Assembly: GCF_018873765.1 (NCBI RefSeq) | Contig: NC_057923.1 | Coordinates: 6,460,413 to 6,524,412 of the forward strand | Source: Telopea speciosissima | Taxonomy: Eukaryota; Streptophyta; Magnoliopsida; Proteales; Proteaceae | Reading direction: 5' to 3' | DNA length: 64,000 nt | Shown here: positions 7,932-28,600 of the stretch, in pieces | Layout: every line of letters begins with the position of its first letter | Position numbering within the stretch: position 1 is the stretch's first letter | Notes under the pieces: model-generated | Told to the model about the DNA's origin: nothing | What the model saw: the letters and a program-made list of their open reading frames with translations, nothing else | Database searches by the model: none | Position numbers and translations under genes: made by a program

Positions 7932-10842
7932 AAAATGAGTGATAGTCGTGAACAGCTGTCACGTCTATTTCCCATTGTGTTTTCTCCGGGTGAGCTTGAT
8001 TCTCTATGTCTCTGCCCCACCTTGGACGAGGTAAGGAGGGTTGTTTTCTCGTTTGGACCCTTGAAGGCTCCAGATATTGATGGCTTTAATGCTAGTTTTT
8101 ATCAAAATTTCTAGGACTTGGTTCACTTTGGATATCTTTCGCTTTGTTTCGGATTTCTTTTCCTCTGGTTATTTACCCTCTGGCATTAACCATACCCTGA
8201 TTGCTCTCATTTCCAAAATTGATAATGCTTCACAGGTTGGGGATTTCAGACATATAAGTTTGTGCAATGTTACTTACAAAATTCTGGCCAAACTTGTTGC
8301 TTCTCGCTTTAAAACTACTCTTCACTCTTTCATTTCTCCATACCAAGCGGCTTTCATCCCGGGTAGACAGATCCAAGACAATATTATCGTGGCCCAGGAA
8401 ATTTTTCATTTTTTGAACCACACTCGTGGCAGGGATGGGTTTGTGGCTATCAAAATCGATATGTCTAAGGCTTATGATAGGATTGAGTAGAACCTTCTTC
8501 TCTCTGTTTTCGGATTCCTGGGGTTTGGAGAGAAATGGCAATATCTTATTCGTAATCTGATCTCTTCTACTTCTTTCTCCATCAAGTTGGATGGCAGTCC
8601 TTTTGAATTTTTTCATGCTTCTAGGGGGTTGCATCAGGGTTGCCCTCTTAGTCCTTATCTTTTTTTAATCGTCATGGAGGTTCTGTCTCGTCTTTTCACT
8701 GCTTACCATGAATTGGATATGTTTCATGGAGTTAAAATTTGTCGCCATGCTCCTGAAGTAACTCATCTCTTTTTTGCAGATGACATTTTTATTTTTTGTC
8801 GGGAGGCTTCTGACAACTTATTAACTATTAAGGCAATCTTGGACCTTTTCTCTGACCTGTCGAGACAAGAGATTAATTACTCCAAAAGTAGTATCCATTT
8901 CAGTCGAAATGTCCCTTTTGGTCTTCGACTTTCTCTTACTTCTCTTTTGGGAATCAAGGAAATGATAACTGACGCCGTGTACCTGGGAACTAACTTATTT
9001 CATGGCAGGTCCAAAAGGAGGGAGCTAGAGGGGGTCCTGGCTAGAATGCATATGAAGTTTGCTTCTTGGAAATCTAATCTTTTATCTTATGCTAGACGTA
9101 GTGTCCTTATTAATTCAATGCTTGCATCCACTCTAGCTTTCTTAATGCACTGTTTTCGTTTCCCTCTTCATACGTGTCGCGAGATGGATTCCTTGTGTCT
9201 CAGGTTTTGGCAGAGGGGTGCTAACAGTTCACAAAAGAAGACTTCACTTATCTCTTGGACCAAAATGTGCACTCCTAAGAGCCACGGGGGGCTTGGGTTC
9301 TATAAGGCTGAACATCATAACGAGGCCCTCTTAACTAAGTTGAGTTGGAGACAGCTTACTGAGCCTCAATCGTTGTGGGCCCATTTGCTTAGAGCAAAGT
9401 ATTTCCATAACCGTTCTTTGTTCAACCCCTCAGTCAGAGCTCGGAGAGGATCTTGGGTGTGGAATAGCATATCCCACGTTATTCCTGTTCTTGAAAAACT
9501 GGTTTTCAAAAAACTGAGTAATGGCTCATCTACTTATTTCTTGTATGATAAATGGATTCCCGACCTCACAGGTAATCTGTCTGATTTATCATCTCACAAA
9601 TTATCTTCTTCTGACAAATCTAAGCTGTTATGTCATTTTTACATGGTAATCTTTGGAACACTAGCCTTCTGATTGATTGTATTCCCCAATCTATATCTCA
9701 TCGCATACAATCTATTACTATTTCTGATTCTGATGACAAGTGGTGGTGCATTAAATCTAAAAATGGAATATTAACCACCAAGTTAGTTGCCTGCCAACTT
9801 CAATCTCATTATTCTAATGCTTCAGCTATTGATGTTGTTTGGTGGATTTTCTTTTGGAAATTACAGATTCACCCAAAATTTAAGTTCTTTATGTGGTGTG
9901 TGTTAAATGCAGGAATACCTACTAGAGCTATTCTCTCCAATTGGATCCAGATGGACTCCACATGTGCTCTTTGTGGAACTGGTGTTGAATCCTCATGGCA
10001 ACTGTTCTTTTCTTGTGATTGGGTCAAGCACATTTGGGTGGCAGGGCCTCTTGGGTTGAGAACCGATTTCATAGCTTTAAAGGATATGAAATCAGCTTGC
10101 CTTTTCTTTTTCCTACAATTCCAGTCAGATAAACATCTTCTCATCTGGTTTTTTAGTGTTTTTTCTATTACCTGTTACTTTATTTGGGCTGCTAGAAACA
10201 GGGTTGTAGTATGTTTGGAAAAGGCTGATCCATCATGGGTCTTGAAACATATTAATCAATGGATTGCGGATTTCAATTTATTCCCCCCCGCCCACCCTTT
10301 CATCCTCCCCTGTAATGGCTATTGTGGATACAATTTCGATTGCCTATTCTTCTCTTACTATACCTGTACTTAATTTTCCTGTTTTAATCTGTGTAGGATA
10401 CTCTAGGCCTGGACTAACTACAGCTGGATGGTCCTATTTCTTTTTGATTGATGGCAGACTAAAGTTTTTTGATACAGGGACTTTACCTTACATACCACAT
10501 TTACTGGTTCTTCTTTTTGTACTCCAGAAAAGGTGTGACCATGATGTCAACATTGGGTTGAAGATAAAAGAAATATGGATTGATCACAAGTTGATTACGG
10601 ATACTCTTCCATCTCCATCCAAATGTTTATGGCCATGGTTTCTGTTTAAAGACTTCTTGTATATTTCTGACTTAACCCAAGGTGTACAGTTTTCACGGAC
10701 AGGTGATAGGTTGTGTTTACCAATAGCCAGGAACTTAGCTAGGAATGTGTGCTGGCAAGATGTATTAAACAATGTAGACTGCTCCTCTGTTTAACTACTC
10801 TTTGTTTATTTTCATCCAAAAAAAAAAAAAAAAAATGAGTGA
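7932..10842 (+). mobile_element. 5'-truncated L1-type LINE (RT, zinc finger, RNase H)
   Basis: The body runs from about 7943 to a 3' poly-A tract at 10818-10834. It is flanked by the direct repeat AAAATGAGTGA (7932-7942 and 10832-10842; the A part is ambiguous at the tail). Translation starts just before the reverse transcriptase domain (APDIDGFNASFYQ), then gives the RT blocks ISLCNVTYKILAKLVASR, AAFIPGRQIQDN, RGLHQGCPLSPYLF and the catalytic FADD in HLFFADDIFIF. A zf-RVT segment follows (FWKLQIHPKFKFFMW, CALCGTGVESSWQLFFSC), then a diverged RNase H-like tail at about 10390-10794. The endonuclease part is missing. The frame is broken: Trp to TAG after AYDRIE at 8488, another stop near 8113, and frame changes near 9630 and 10264-10373. 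It is a dead insertion of moderate age. Confidence 0.92.
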
Positions 10843-17137: not shown

Positions 17138-17941
17138 TCAGACTGTACAATAATGGTTCTTGTTTGAGAATCCGAGCCAATTTGAATCCTCTACTGCCAA
17201 GCTACCCAACAAGATTGTGCTGTGCCCAGACACAGTGCGGACATGAACGACCTCAGATTCCTTAAACAGTTCCACCAAAGGTGTTAGGCTGTACAGATCG
17301 TTGGCCGAATACTAATCGGACTTCCTCGACAATGCAACATGTAAGACACAGATCCCTCCGGGCTTCAACGTCCGTTCGATCTCTCCAACGAACCTGGACG
17401 GGTAGAGCGCATGGTCGAACACATTTGAGAATTCGAAATCGAAAGTGTGGTTGGGGAAGCGCTGGTTGTGGAAATCTCCCATCAACACTAGCGGAGGGTA
17501 AGGCACGAGATCGATACCAATCGAGTTTTAAACGCCGATCCGTTGCAGCGCGACCACCTCTTGGCCCACTCGAGCACCGATACAGAGCGCCTTGGAATGG
17601 TTGGAGAGAAGGTTTTTGTGTTTCAAATCGGTGAAGAAATTGGAGAACACTTGGATCTTGCGTTCCCAGTCCCTTGTGGTCCACACTTTCCTTAGCATTG
17701 GATTAAGGGTTTTGTTGAGCTGGTGTTGTATGTACTTATCGTAGGAGTTGAAGCCAGGCCTGATTCGGAGCCCACCGGCAGAACGTGATGATGATGGTTG
17801 TTTAAGCAGAGATTCGAAGGTGGTGGTATCGTGGAAGCGGGATTGGAGAGAGACGACAAGCAAGAAGATGAAGGAGATGATCAGGGAAAGGAAGATTAAG
17901 AAGGGCTTCAGGATGACTGGTTTTCTTTGGTTTTCCTTCAT
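17138..17941 (-). pseudogene. Membrane-anchored SAM-methyltransferase-like gene with two in-frame stops
   Basis: One reading frame runs from ATG 17941 to TGA 17138-17140 (268 codons) with no frame change, but it carries TAA at 17528-17530 (codon 138) and TAG at 17312-17314 (codon 210). Both stand where relatives, as I recall them, have Lys (GVKNSIG, SRKSDKYSAND). The N-terminus is a signal anchor (residues about 9-33, PVILKPFLIFLSLIISFIF). Then come the SAM-binding block KALCIGARVGQEVVALQ, DLVPYPPLVLMGDFHNQ, FDFEFSNVFDHALYP and RTLKPGGICVLHVALS. This is the plant family that includes At4g24805 (from memory; a Golgi/endomembrane methyltransferase-like protein of unknown substrate). The intronless, otherwise clean frame suggests recent loss of function, or two base errors in the assembly. 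Confidence 0.8.
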
Positions 17942-20839: not shown

Positions 20840-21440
20840 CCTTTGATCACTGTACAAGTGGTCCTGAGCTCACGCAAGACACGCCACTCTTGAGCGGGAA
20901 CCGTTAAACCGATTTGCAACTGGCTGTTATTGATGAAGCCTGATCTTAATTCAAAAAGTGTTGTGGTGATTCTTCGGTAGGTCATTTCGCCTTCGAAACG
21001 CACCAAAATGGCCAAAAAGTGCATACCTCAGTGCCATAGGCACTGCCTCTGTAGAGCTCGTCGAGAGCTTCAATTTGATATGTATTTCGAACTATTTCGG
21101 CTCAGGTCCAAACCGAGTGGATTAAAGGGGGCAGTTTTGTACTTTCTAGGGGTTAGGGTTTTCTTATATAATGTTGTTATCTCTTTGACAGATGTGTACG
21201 TGATAGGGTTTTGTATTTTTTGCTTCACAGATTACTGGATTCATACTATCGCTTGGTCGTGGACATAGCCTTCCTTCTTGGGGATGAACCACGTAAATCT
21301 TGTCTTGTGCGTGTGTTTTTTTCTCTTTCACTTGGCATTTTCTTCTACAAAATCGTCATTCTGGGCGCTATTTTTCAACACTGTCGTTGTGGAGAATTTC
21401 AAGTTGAGTGGCCATGTGAGAAATTCTGATTACGAGTCTT
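20840..21440 (+). other. Second copy of the 16.7-17.0 kb sequence, split by an LTR fossil
   Basis: Blocks matching the minus strand of 16690-17030 are found at 20850-20922 and again from about 21390. Between them sits a segment of about 460 bp that belongs to LTR-like family B. The interruption is simple: the matching sequence resumes within a few bases on the far side. Related GGAAGGAAAAAA...TGCACTCATT blocks at about 20605-20660 and 21445-21500 form a direct repeat around the unit. Confidence 0.5.
20925..21385 (+). mobile_element. Solo LTR-like fossil, family B, copy 1
   Basis: It starts TGTTATTGATGAAGCC and ends near TTCAACA. It carries CGTGGACATAGCC followed by GAACCACGTAAATC, a motif common in LTRs of plant Copia-type retrotransposons. 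It is about 460 bp with no internal region beside it, so it is best read as a solo LTR. Family placement as Copia is inference from the motif. Confidence 0.6.
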
Positions 21441-21820: not shown

Positions 21821-22192
21821 ACACCACGGGCAGTACACCGTAGACGATCACGATCCCCCCCCCCACTCCTAATTATAATCTGACCCGTATCCAATGTCTT
21901 TGATTTTCACTAAACTAGGATAACCATTGGTGTCGTTAGGAGGATCCATCAGATATTAATTCTAACCCCCAACGGTGGATGGATTACCTAACACGTACAG
22001 AAAAAGATATATATATACATAAAGTTGATGAAGATGGTGGATGAGGTAGTAGAGGAAGAAGAAAGCAACCCAAGTCTATAAATATCTTTTTAATTCACAA
22101 GAACATATTCTAAGAAAGAAGAGAAAATTATTAAGGAAGAAACGAATGCAATAACGACAGCAAATGCTAAGTCATGTATGATATGATAAGAA

Positions 22193-22229: not shown

Positions 22230-22711
22230 GAGGTGGTTTTATCTTTTATCATAAAAAGGTTTCTTAAGAGTAACAAGTCTTGCTTCCTCTTATACGGATT
22301 GATTAAGACTAATCATGATCTATTGTCTCTACCATTCATTCACAAATCATCACAACTCCGAAATCTAAAGCTTATCTTGTTTTGAGTTCTTCCACTAGGA
22401 TGGTCATTTCCGTCCCCCCATGAGATGTACTGGCGTAAATGAAAAGACAGATAAATGGAGATGATAAAGATCCCCACTTTACTACCAGAAGACAAAAGTT
22501 TCATCAAGGAGATGATTGTGGGGGAAGGGATTGCATGGTTCCTGTCTCCCGATTCCCGAGAGGTTAGTTCATTTATTCTTCCCCTTACCTTCCTCCATTT
22601 TTTCATTTTTTTTTTCCTTGCTTGTTCTTACTGTAATTTTAGTGTTTGTTTGATATCTATCTTGGCTAGATTTTGTTGAAGAAAGGTTGAAGAAAAAAGG
22701 TTGAGTAAGAT

Positions 22712-22812
22712 GGTGTAAGTTGACAGAAGATAGAGAGCACAACTGAACACACACATGAAGAGTTGTGTTTGGGCAGTTTTGTGCTCTCTCTTCTTCTGTC
22801 AACAAATATTCA
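22712..22812 (+). ncRNA. MIR157: miR156/157 precursor stem-loop
   Basis: The 21 bases at 22720-22740 start TTGACAGAAGA and end GAGAGCAC; as I remember it this equals the miR157 mature sequence. The 3' arm (about 22781-22804, GTGCTCTCTC then TTCTTCTGTCAAC) is its inverse complement except for one mismatch and one extra base, and the pairing continues past both ends (AACTG with CAGTT). The loop is about 35 bases. This is the normal layout of plant MIR156/157 genes: mature strand in the 5' arm, star strand near 22783-22804. miR156/157 targets SPL transcription factor mRNAs and controls the juvenile-to-adult phase change. It is likely transcribed by Pol II from the plus strand; I did not find a certain TATA box. 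The mature region shows no decay, although LTR and SINE debris lie on both sides. Confidence 0.88.
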
Positions 22813-22956: not shown

Positions 22957-23076
22957 GGGTGCGATCATACCAGCACTAATGCACCGGATCCCATCAGAAC
23001 TCCGCAGTTAAGCGTGCTTGGACAAGAATAGTACTAGAATGGATGACCTATTGGGAAGTCCTCGTGTTGCACCCCC
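22957..23076 (+). rRNA. Lone 5S rRNA copy, probably a decayed dispersed copy
   Basis: Full-length 5S sequence of about 120 bases: it opens GGGTGCGATCATACCAGCAC, keeps GGATCCCATCAGAACTCCGC and AGTTAAGCGTGCTTGG, and closes TCCTCGTGTTGCACCCCC. It is followed by TTTT, as a Pol III stop. Against the usual plant 5S, the stretch covering the internal control region C differs at several sites (GACAAGAATAG, ACTAGAATGGATGACC, CTATTGGG), nearly all G-to-A or C-to-T, the pattern left by methylated-cytosine deamination. There is a single copy and no tandem array, so it is probably a transposed, silent gene. Confidence 0.85.
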
Positions 23077-23138
23077 TTTTCAAATCTATCAAAAATAAAA
23101 AAGGGGGGGGGGAGACTAGAAGGTGAATAGAGAAAGGG

Positions 23139-23268
23139 ATTGCAACCATCAGGTTGTGGGTTCGAAACATGGAGATAGGCTTTCTGCAAAGGGGGGATAA
23201 GGTTGCATACATTTGCCCCTCGTAGATCCTATAGTAATAGAATCCTTGTGCACAGGAACACTTTTTTT
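23139..23268 (+). mobile_element. Au SINE, 5'-incomplete copy
   Basis: The B box region GTGGGTTCGAAAC, then GGCTTTCTGCAAAGG, GGTTGCATACATTTGCCCC, TAGATCC and TTGTGCACAGG before a T run match the plant Au SINE. The A-box head is lost or blurred. It sits about 60 bp downstream of the 5S copy. Confidence 0.75.
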
Positions 23269-24277
23269 ATTTTATTTTATATAATAGTAAAGCTCATATA
23301 AAATTGAATTCCCTTTGACACAAACCGGATAAAATGGAAGAAACACATATAAAAAACCATTGGAATCACTGAGGAACTCAAAAAATTAATGAAGGATTAA
23401 TGGAGTTGAACCACTCCTCTGGGATTTGGATAAAGGTCAATAATTGATGAGGTCAGGGCTTGGATAAAAGAGTATAGTATTGCTTTCTTAGGTGGTGACT
23501 GCCTAGGTGATACGTTCCTCAATTAGGGCCATGAAGTGGGGGAATTGCCTTTTTTTTTGTTTTCCCTTCCTTCTTAATTCCTCTTGGCGATGCTTGCCAA
23601 AGTAGTTGAATAGTCTATCTTTGTTAGGGCTTATGCGTATGAGGGCATGAATTTATTTGACTAAAGGCTTAGTGATCCAATTGCGACTTAACTTGCTCTT
23701 TCCCTATATCAAGGGTGGTGTAGTCAGCTTTGCCAGGGGGCTTGAGTTGTATGCCTGGCCATGCAGTGCTTGAGTCTCCAAAGTAGTGGTCCTTGCTAGT
23801 CTTGGTTCTCCTGGTCTATGGCACAAGGTTAAGACACGAAAGTCAAATCTGTGACTTCCTAGAAGCTTGCACTTTATGCACTCTACAGGGCATCAACCAA
23901 CTGAGCAAGCAATTGTCTTTACGAGGACCATATGTTGGCACGGTTTTTGAATTGGTATGTCACGTGGACTAGAGGTTCCATGTCATCAAAAGCCCTAGAT
24001 CAAACTCCTATTATGAAAATTCTATTTCATGAATAGTAAAATCCTCCCATCACCATATATGAATCTAAGTACTTATAAATCATCTCCTACCCCAATGTTA
24101 CTCTTCATTTGGATCCATTCTTCTTCTAAGCGCTCAATTCACTGTAACCTCAGCTTGAGATTTAGTCCATTCCAAGGGTAGTCCAGTCTCGTGGGTAACT
24201 GGACAATGTGAGGCATTCTAGCTAATCTATGAGGTGGATTTTCTATATATTGCATATTTATGTTTTTTTTTTCAGAA
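23269..24277. other. Gene-free stretch between Au SINE copies
   Basis: No gene is seen. On the minus strand, about 23820-23925 reads TTGCTCAGTTGGTTGATGCC and, further on, GTCACAGATTTGACTTTC, which resembles tRNA A and B boxes in the right order and may be another old SINE head. The evidence is weak. Confidence 0.35.
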
Positions 24278-24576: not shown

Positions 24577-25033
24577 TGTTGGGGGTGTTACGAAAACAAC
24601 GCCCAGAATGGCGATTTGCCGAAGAAAAATGAAATAGAAAAGAACATACAACGCACAACACAGAGATTTTACGTGGTTCACCTCCAATCTGGAAGCTACA
24701 TCCACGGCTGAGCAGTAGACAAATTTCACTATGTCTCTGAAGTATTACAAAATCCTCATCTTACTCTCTCAAAGAGATAAGAACAATAAATAAGAAAGCC
24801 CTAACCCAAAAAGTACACAAATGCCCCTAGCCCAAAAATGCCCAAAAAACTTGGGTCGGACCAAAACATAACACATGGCTCAAAAGGTACTCGTTTCGAA
24901 GATCTCAACTAGCCTAACACTTTGGCATGGAACCCCGCCAGTTTTTGGCATTTCGAGATCGTTTCGAGGTCGAAATGGCCAATTGAAGGTCTCAATCGCA
25001 CTTTCTGGACCAAATCAGGCTTCACCAACAACA
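24577..25033 (-). mobile_element. Solo LTR-like fossil, family B, copy 2
   Basis: Bounded by TGTTG on the left and CAACA on the right in this orientation. On the minus strand it reads GGTGAAGCCTGATTTGGTCC, later GCCGTGGATGTAGCTTCC and GAACCACGTAAAATCTC, and ends with AATCGCCATTCTGGGCGTTG. Matching blocks are in the copies at 20925 and 26345. No internal region was recognised on either side. Confidence 0.65.
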
Positions 25034-26344: not shown

Positions 26345-26744
26345 TGAATTGTTATTGGTGAAGCCTAATTTCGGTCCAGAAAGTGGTTCAAAGGATCTTC
26401 GGAGGCCTATTTCAGCCTCAAAACAAGCTTAGATGGCTACATCAATGCCAAAAGTGTTGAGTTGTGTAGATCTCGTTGAGACCTTCGAAACGATATGTAT
26501 TTCGACATATGTTTAGTTTTGGTCCGACCCTGGTTAGTTGGTCATTTTTGGGCTCTAGGGGTATTTCTGTACTTTCTGGGTTTGGGCTTCTCTAGATATT
26601 GTTCTTTTCTCTGGGAGGGCTGACATAGAGGGTTTATAACAATTTCAGAGATAGTGAAAACATGTTCTGTTGCTCGACCGTGGATGTAGCTTCCCATCTT
26701 GGGGGTGAACCACGTAAATCCTTTGTATTGTGCGTTGTGTGTGT
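26345..26744 (+). mobile_element. LTR-like fossil, family B, copy 3
   Basis: It starts TGTTATTGGTGAAGCC and contains GTTTTGGTCCGACCC, CTAGGGGTATTTCTGTAC, CGTGGATGTAGCTTCCC and GAACCACGTAAATCC in family order. Its right end runs into one arm of the inverted repeat at 26745-27076, and a short piece of it (GGGGTGAACCACGTAAATCC) is repeated in that repeat's loop. Confidence 0.6.
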
Positions 26745-27076
26745 TTAAATCAGAATCCTCATTTTAATTTTCTTTTCTTGAAGAGGAAACATATTAATAA
26801 GGGGTTGAAATCGAAAGAAGAGATCTGGGACATGAGCTCACAATTGATACCAACCGATACAATTTGGTTGATATGGCCGAATCAGTTGTGACGGCATTTG
26901 CACAACCCAATGTTTGGGGTGAACCACGTAAATCCTTTGTATTGCCATATCAGCCAAATTGCATCGGTTGGTATCAATTGTGAGCTCATGTCCCAAATCT
27001 CTTCTTTCGATTTCGACCCCTTAATAATATGTTTCCTCTTCAAGAAAAGAAAATTAAAATGAGGATTCTGATTTAA
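26745..27076. repeat. Large inverted repeat, two arms of about 133 bp
   Basis: Arm 1 (26745-26877) starts TTAAATCAGAATCCTC and ends GGTTGATATGGC. Arm 2 (26944-27076) is its inverse complement with roughly five differences, about 96 % identical. The 66-base loop contains a second copy of TTGGGGTGAACCACGTAAAT, which also stands at the end of the LTR fossil just before arm 1. If transcribed it would fold into a long double-stranded RNA. Confidence 0.9.
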
Positions 27077-27184: not shown

Positions 27185-27757
27185 TGATCTCATCATCAAC
27201 CCTCTCATGTTGCTGACTGGTTCCCACCTCCAACTGGTTTTGTAAAGGTAAATTGTGATGCGGCATTGAAGCAGAGTAGCTTGGAGGGAGGCATTGGCTT
27301 GGTGTTTCGGTCAGATGTGGGAAGGCCCTTACATGTGTTATCTACTCCCCTTCATTTCACTTCTGCAATTCAAGGTGAAGCTCTTTCCATCAAAATGGCC
27401 ATTACTAAAGCGGCCACTCTGAGGATATCGCATTTTGTCGTGGAATCTGACTGCAAAGAAGCTATTCTTTACCTTCACAATAATCTTACGCACCCTTCCC
27501 TTGAAGCAGTTGTAATTTTGGATTATGTTAAGCACCTATGTAATACCTTTACTGCTGTTTCGTTTTTTTTTTATTCCACGGGATCTGAATACTGTTGCAG
27601 ATATTCTGGCCAAGAGGGCCCTGTCTAGTGTGTGTATGACAGATTGGCCCATTTCCACTCCTTGGCTCCAAAACATGCTTAGAGTTTGAGGCCCCTCACA
27701 TGATTATCAATAAAGCTTCTTGTTACCCAAAAAAAAAAAATTTGATCTCATCATCAA
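27185..27757 (+). mobile_element. Severely 5'-truncated LINE carrying only the RNase H end
   Basis: A perfect 15-bp direct repeat (TGATCTCATCATCAA, 27185-27199 and 27743-27757) flanks a body of about 540 bp. The body encodes an RNase H domain of the kind at the C-terminus of plant L1 elements: VNCDAALKQSSLEGGIGLVF, later AIQGEALSIKMAI with the acidic residue, FVVESDCKEAI, and, after a frame change in a T run near 27560, NTVADILAKRALSS. It ends with AATAAAG, TTGTTACCC and a poly-A tract at 27729-27740. The perfect repeat implies a young insertion. Confidence 0.9.
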
Positions 27758-28265: not shown

Positions 28266-28600
28266 TTAGGAATTGACAACGCAATAGAACAATGTTTTAC
28301 GAAAGATAAACGAAAAAGGAGATCATACACACACAGAACATAGATTTACGTGTTCATCCAAGGTGGTTGGGCTATGTCCACGGCCAAGCGATAAGTAGGC
28401 TTCCACTATTCCAATGATAAAATTACAAACCTTCACCCCTTATATATAGCGTCTTGTGCAGTACAATATAAAAAAACCCTAATCCTCAAACGTACAAAAT
28501 TACCCCAGTATAAACTAACACCCAAACACATAAAGTTGAACTACCACTCAAATAGCAGATTATAAAACTTGTTCTGTAGATAGCGAGAAGCACATGAGAT
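28266..28600 (-). mobile_element. LTR-like fossil related to family B
   Basis: On the minus strand it shows TATATATAAGGGGTG (TATA-like), GGCCGTGGACATAGCCC and GAACACGTAAATCTATG, then ends near TCCTAACA. The order equals family B, but overall similarity is lower, so it may be a sister family. Right boundary uncertain. Confidence 0.5.

What the first reader, a model, noticed from the sequence alone, without database searches (positions are those of the whole stretch)
22712..22812. Apparently intact miR156/157 gene hidden among transposon debris
The 21 bases at 22720-22740 equal the miR157 mature strand as I remember it, and the facing arm pairs almost perfectly around a short loop. No protein gene overlaps it, so a protein-only annotation would miss it. 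LTR fossils, a 5S copy and Au SINEs lie within about 2 kb, yet the stem has not decayed, which argues for selection.
Basis: partly seen in the sequence, partly recalled or inferred. Interest (0 to 1): 0.8.

Follow-up and report, generated by a model that had tools for sequence, protein, structure and literature searches.

The report
A conserved miR157-type microRNA gene
This is an apparently intact extra copy of one of the best-known plant microRNA genes (the miR156/157 family, which delays the change from juvenile to adult growth), carrying the standard miR157 sequence on a slightly unusual hairpin; it is a good gene candidate, but of an ordinary, well-studied kind.

Summary
Confirmed. Window 22720-22740 is exactly the 21-nt miR157 sequence, and 22781-22802 pairs with it (20 of 21 bases). 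The fold beats all 200 shuffles (z -6.3). The host is an 823 Mb plant genome, probably Telopea speciosissima (inferred). It holds nine exact copies of the 21-mer: eight in MIR157-type hairpin clusters on C2 and C11, plus this lone one on C8. Rfam's MIR156 score (41.5 bits) is below the cut-off of 62, but so are all 8 MIR157-type hairpins tested here (36-43). Nine SPL-like target sites lie downstream of sense SBP-domain exons. The hairpin resembles its paralogues; the flanks do not. One oddity: the star arm is not MIR157-type but identical to two MIR156-like loci on C9 and C10 and to an ice-plant star. Whether this is a divergent MIR157 or a MIR156H-like gene with a miR157 mature strand is unresolved. 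The duplicated block on C3 lacks the hairpin. Expression is untested. New member of a known kind; interest low.

The parts
22720..22740 (+). mature miR157 (21 nt, 5' arm)
   Evidence: exact sequence; 9 exact copies in genome, 0 control
22741..22780 (+). stretch between the arms (partly paired upper stem and terminal loop)
   Evidence: fold; 40 nt
22781..22802 (+). 3' arm facing the mature strand; 22781-22801 is exact at only three loci in the genome (C8, C9, C10)
22783..22804 (+). predicted miR157* by the 2-nt 3' overhang rule; its first 21 nt equal the ice-plant miR156e* of PMC4977306
22076..22084 (+). candidate TATA box (CTATAAATA), about 640 bp before the mature strand
   Evidence: consensus match only; 3 such 9-mers on the + strand of the window, 0.03 expected per 650 bp

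Best explanation
A MIR156/157-family microRNA gene on the + strand. Most likely mechanism (known for the family, inferred here): Pol II transcribes a primary RNA, possibly from a TATA box near 22076; DCL1 cuts the hairpin to the 22720-22740 / 22783-22804 duplex; the 5' strand enters AGO1 and represses SPL (SBP-box) mRNAs through one conserved site that pairs except at miRNA position 12, adding to the pool of miR157 that holds back the juvenile-to-adult change. Shown here: sequence, fold, duplex geometry, paralogues, SPL-like sites. Inferred: transcription, processing, loading, repression, biological role.
For: Exact miR157 21-mer, 9 copies in genome, 0 reversed control. Fold z -6.29, 0 of 200. 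20 of 21 bases paired, one-base asymmetry, 22-nt star with 2-nt overhang. Rfam best match MIR156 (41.5 bits, E 1.7e-7 for 301 bases), the same range as 8 of 8 MIR157-type hairpins of this genome that were scanned (36.2-43.2). Hairpin aligns over 81-82 of 83 nt at 73-77% with MIR157-type loci in all five C2/C11 regions, and its 3' arm is identical to those on C9 and C10, while dust-filtered BLAST finds only one 25-nt match in 820 bp upstream and 898 bp downstream. Star sequence known from sequencing in ice plant (PMC4977306 Table 1, passage). Nine of nine SPL-like sites have an SBP exon upstream in the same sense, 3.7-37 kb away (30 of 54 SBP matches were used, those that begin the domain). In Macadamia, also Proteaceae, miR156 was measured by qRT-PCR over the life cycle (PMC6558100, passages).
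Against: Below Rfam's gathering score (41.5 against 62), and MIR535 scores nearly as well (39.8). The antisense strand also folds well and scores 38.4 (MIR535) and 33.2 (MIR156), so the strand rests on the exact mature sequence and the candidate TATA box. The star arm carries an uncompensated mismatch at mature position 12 that the two other miR157 hairpins so compared lack. The hairpin is missing from the duplicated block on C3, so it may be dispensable or a later arrival. No gene models were built for the SPL loci; for one of nine sites an opposite-strand SBP exon is nearer. No small-RNA or transcript data.
Confidence: 0.88

Rival explanations
1. A dead or silent MIR156/157 copy: correct by descent but no longer transcribed, too recent in its death to have decayed.
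For: Lone copy, dispersed repeats and a 5S copy within 160 bp to 1.6 kb; position-12 mismatch not compensated; ohnologous block lacks it.
Against: Exact 21-mer and star arm with no base lost to any paralogue set, while the flanks have lost all but simple-repeat similarity. If the split from C10 or C9 were as old as the C8/C3 duplication (22.2% difference at 580 fourfold sites), 1 or 2 differences in 42 arm bases would have P 3e-4 or 2e-3; that age is an assumption.
Confidence: 0.08
2. Not a microRNA gene but a chance or repeat-derived inverted repeat.
For: Eight other gapless 21-bp inverted repeats with at most 2 mismatches exist in the window, so hairpins alone are common here.
Against: None of those carries a conserved microRNA; the 21-mer is expected 4e-4 times in the genome by chance. 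The hairpin is not a dispersed repeat: the genome search with 136 bases found only itself and C11 MIR157-type hairpins (the sensitive first look took 3 candidates).
Confidence: 0.02
3. A hairpin carried inside a larger DNA transposon bounded by the 43-nt inverted repeats at 21150-21192 and 24765-24807.
For: 88% complementary arms that flank the hairpin.
Against: Both arms are opposite-facing copies of one dispersed repeat of about 200 bp, with further copies at 26558-26746 and 28327-28506 in the window and 40 further matches listed genome-wide (40 of 690 candidates scored).
Confidence: 0.01

Closest known systems
MIR157 (Arabidopsis MIR157A-C; here the C2 and C11 clusters)
   Same: identical 21-nt mature strand; 5'-arm position; 38-40 nt between the arms (40 here); hairpin alignable over its length at 73-77%
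   Different: star arm CTCTCTCTTCTTC in place of CTCTCTATGCTTC; position 12 unpaired; different sequence between the arms; lone rather than clustered
MIR156H-like loci on C10 and C9 (C10 mature TTGACAGAAGAAAGAGAGCAC, read as the MIR156H sequence of PMC5929574 Table 1, whose columns are printed out of order in the held text)
   Same: 21 of 21 bases of the 3' arm; mature strand followed by AAC; C10 mature differs at one base, C9 at two
   Different: 43 and 52 nt between the arms; BLAST aligns only the 22-nt 3' arm
ice plant mcr-miR156e (PMC4977306 Table 1, passage)
   Same: its miRNA* GCTCTCTCTTCTTCTGTCAAC equals window 22783-22803
   Different: its mature strand is TGACAGAAGAGAGAGAGCAC; precursor not seen
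MIR535 (Rfam RF00714)
   Same: scores 39.8 bits, near MIR156's 41.5
   Different: below its cut-off of 64; mature strand is exactly miR157, not miR535

Membership tests
MIR156/157 | mature 20-21 nt sequence of the family at the 5' arm | tested here: met
   exact miR157 21-mer
MIR156/157 | stem with few mismatches in the miRNA/miRNA* duplex and a 2-nt 3' overhang possible (criteria recalled from the plant miRNA annotation literature) | tested here: met
   1 unpaired mature base, 2 opposite, 22-nt star
MIR156/157 | Rfam RF00073 gathering score (62 bits) | tested here: not met
   41.5 bits; but 8 of 8 MIR157-type hairpins scanned (36.2-43.2) and 2 of 6 MIR156 loci (59.1, 41.3) are below it too, so the cut-off does not cover this branch of the family
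MIR156/157 | SPL mRNAs with a complementary site in the same genome | tested here: met
   9 of 9 sites with a same-sense SBP exon upstream; gene models not built
MIR156/157 | precisely processed small RNAs from both arms | not testable with these tools
   no small-RNA reads
MIR157 clade (by descent) | groups with the C2/C11 MIR157-type hairpins | tested here: inconclusive
   in the best tree with support 43/26 only; clade with C9 and C10 is 0.08 log units worse, p-AU 0.496
MIR535 | Rfam RF00714 gathering score (64 bits) | tested here: not met
   39.8 bits

The most novel reading that the evidence does not exclude
Convergence: this is a MIR156H-like gene in which one base change at position 12 turned the mature strand into exact miR157, so a plant can make the miR157 isoform from a backbone that is not MIR157 by descent, with an uncompensated mismatch left in the duplex as its trace.
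Probability: 0.4. Interest if true: 0.35.

Novelty: new member of a known kind. Interest (0 to 1): 0.17.

Why it matters
If expressed, it is one more source of miR157 in a woody Proteaceae, outside the two clusters, which a protein-only annotation, or Rfam at its standard cut-off, would miss (one search lists only the 5S copy). The star-arm mismatch offers a small test of whether identical mature microRNAs can arise from different precursor branches.

Tried and rejected
Transposon with 43-nt terminal repeats around the gene: the arms are opposite copies of one dispersed repeat. Cassandra-type LTR for the 5S copy (name recalled): its genome matches are mostly limited to the 5S gene itself, 22957-23083, and about half or more of the 53 listed sit in one tandem array at C10:41.24 Mb, so it reads as a dispersed 5S gene copy. 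Decayed hairpin on C3: 5 places in 60 kb within 6 of 21 mismatches on the + strand, none on the -; the one inside the matching interval, C3:4940427 (6 mismatches), does not fold as a family hairpin. Gene-order link of the window with C9 or C10: in the 10 kb held around each, the shared stretches were repeats; the MA3-domain gene has no copy near them, nor has PsbY; wider blocks were not compared. Percent identity of flanks was unstable (global alignment with free ends; some values well above and some below the shuffle mean, e.g. 0.55-0.59 upstream for C9/C10 against 0.25-0.40) and was replaced. Tree: no placement of the window copy is supported or rejected, including a clade with the C2b/C3/C7 MIR156 (p 0.269). 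The locus C2:52241238 (2 mismatches) was left out of the tree. Paper searches on Telopea with microRNA gave 1 paper and on miR156 with Proteaceae 11 papers, none on this gene by title; nothing wider was searched.

Full report
What is there. Window 22720-22740 reads TTGACAGAAGATAGAGAGCAC, and 22781-22802 faces it across 40 nt. The 221-nt region folds at -78.2 kcal/mol, 6.3 sd below its shuffles. Twenty of 21 mature bases pair; two bases are unpaired on the other side, so there is one mismatch and a one-base bulge. No long ORF overlaps.

Which genome. The window is C8:6460413-6524412 of an assembly of 822,943,500 bases in 1287 contigs; C1-C11, where seen, are 57-88 Mb long (C5 was not listed there). 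A Proteaceae paper tabulates Telopea speciosissima as 823 Mb in 11 scaffolds (PMC13080361, passages). The name is therefore an inference from size and number, not from a record.

The family in this genome. The exact 21-mer occurs 9 times, the reversed control never. Within two mismatches there are 23 places (control 1), which include SPL-like sites. Eight exact copies lie in two clusters on C2 and C11, all with the same kind of loop and star. Two further members of the clusters differ only at the first base. With six MIR156 loci, a C10 locus and the window copy, 18 hairpins were compared.

Rfam. At the gathering score only the 5S copy is reported in the whole window. At relaxed settings the hairpin's best match is MIR156, 41.5 bits (cut-off 62), then MIR535, 39.8 (cut-off 64). 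As a control, the eight MIR157-type hairpins in L001, L003, L005 and L007 score 36.2-43.2; of six MIR156 loci four pass (65.4-85.1) and two do not (59.1 and 41.3). Failing the cut-off therefore says nothing against this locus.

The odd star. The 21-mer GTGCTCTCTCTTCTTCTGTCA occurs three times in the genome, with no further place at one mismatch and none for the control: the window, C9:1897525 and C10:48851089, each the 3' arm of a family hairpin. The MIR157-type loci have GTGCTCTCTATGCTTCTGTCA or close variants. The C10 mature strand differs from the window's at position 12 only (A for T). In C10 that A pairs; in the MIR157-type hairpins compared the T pairs with an A in the star; in the window the T faces a T and is unpaired. 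This suggests a T that arose on a C10-like backbone. Against it, the sequence between the arms is 40 nt as in MIR157 (38-40) and not 43-52, and BLAST aligns the whole hairpin with the MIR157-type loci (73-77%) but only the 3' arm with C9 and C10. The tree does not decide: window with MIR157 43/26 support, window with C9 and C10 p-AU 0.496. Outside this genome, ice plant has a miR156e* identical to 22783-22803 beside a miR156d/miR156d* pair of the ordinary MIR157 kind (PMC4977306 Table 1, passage), and Eucommia lists a small RNA GCUCUCUCUUCUUCUGUCACCA (PMC5099690, passage). Both arm types are thus older than this species.

Age and selection. The genes of the window lie in the same order on C3:4.922-4.969 Mb (PPR gene, the gene at 17237-17932, PsbY, MA3-domain gene and others). 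PPR, MA3 and PsbY differ at 22.2% of 580 fourfold-degenerate sites between the blocks. C3 has no recognisable hairpin in the matching interval: lost there, or gained on C8. Arms or hairpin are alignable to the paralogues; the 820 bp before and 898 bp after give one 25-nt match with the low-complexity filter on, and mainly GA/CT runs with it off. That pattern fits selection on the hairpin, but the date of the duplication that made the locus is unknown, and no other species could be compared.

Targets and mode of action. Nine genomic sites read, on the strand opposite to the gene, TGACAGAAGAGAGAGAGCAC. All nine lie 3.7-37 kb downstream of an SBP-domain exon in the same sense (for C6:57781523 an opposite-strand SBP exon is nearer). 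miR157 pairs with these sites except at position 12, the mismatch near the cleavage site that PMC5929574 discusses for Arabidopsis (passages). In that paper miR157 is abundant but less active than miR156 and less efficiently loaded on AGO1; in PMC12404414 MIR157C and MIR157D matter for flowering and inflorescence (passages). By this analogy the window locus adds to the miR157 pool. Transcription, processing and effect are inferred.

Surroundings. A candidate TATA box CTATAAATA lies at 22076. Between it and the hairpin lies a dispersed repeat (22396-22475; 53 matches listed including itself, 40 of 167 candidates scored). After the hairpin come the 5S copy and a SINE-like repeat (23139-23274; 32 of the 40 listed matches, by my count). 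The gene is thus in a repeat-rich gap between two genes 4.8 kb and 7.3 kb away.

Verdict. An ordinary, apparently intact extra member of the MIR156/157 family (0.88). The only point beyond routine annotation is the mixed anatomy: miR157 mature, MIR156H-like star.

Noticed in passing
L035-L039 (C2:52.24-52.26 Mb, C11:55.777-55.800 Mb): Two clusters of MIR157-type hairpins (10 compared), some only 179-424 bp apart, plus a reverse-strand variant at C2:52241238 with two mismatches; an unusually large MIR157 set.
   Followed up: partly
22957-23075: Dispersed 5S rRNA gene copy 155 bp after the hairpin, 94% identical to a copy on C10:22.62 Mb; the tandem 5S array of this genome lies at C10:41.24 Mb.
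   Followed up: partly
22396-22475: Short dispersed repeat, in other places often followed by an inverted second half, so perhaps one half of a fold-back element.
   Followed up: no
21128-21330, 24630-24827, 26558-26746, 28327-28506: Four copies of one dispersed repeat of about 200 bp; two facing copies mimic terminal inverted repeats around the hairpin.
   Followed up: yes
8065-10373: Fragments of a non-LTR-type reverse transcriptase reading frame (Pfam RVT_1 in two neighbouring pieces), and an RNase H-like piece (RVT_3) at 27188-27628.
   Followed up: no
3068-52739: Window block is colinear with C3:4.922-4.969 Mb, as from a whole-genome duplication.
   Followed up: partly
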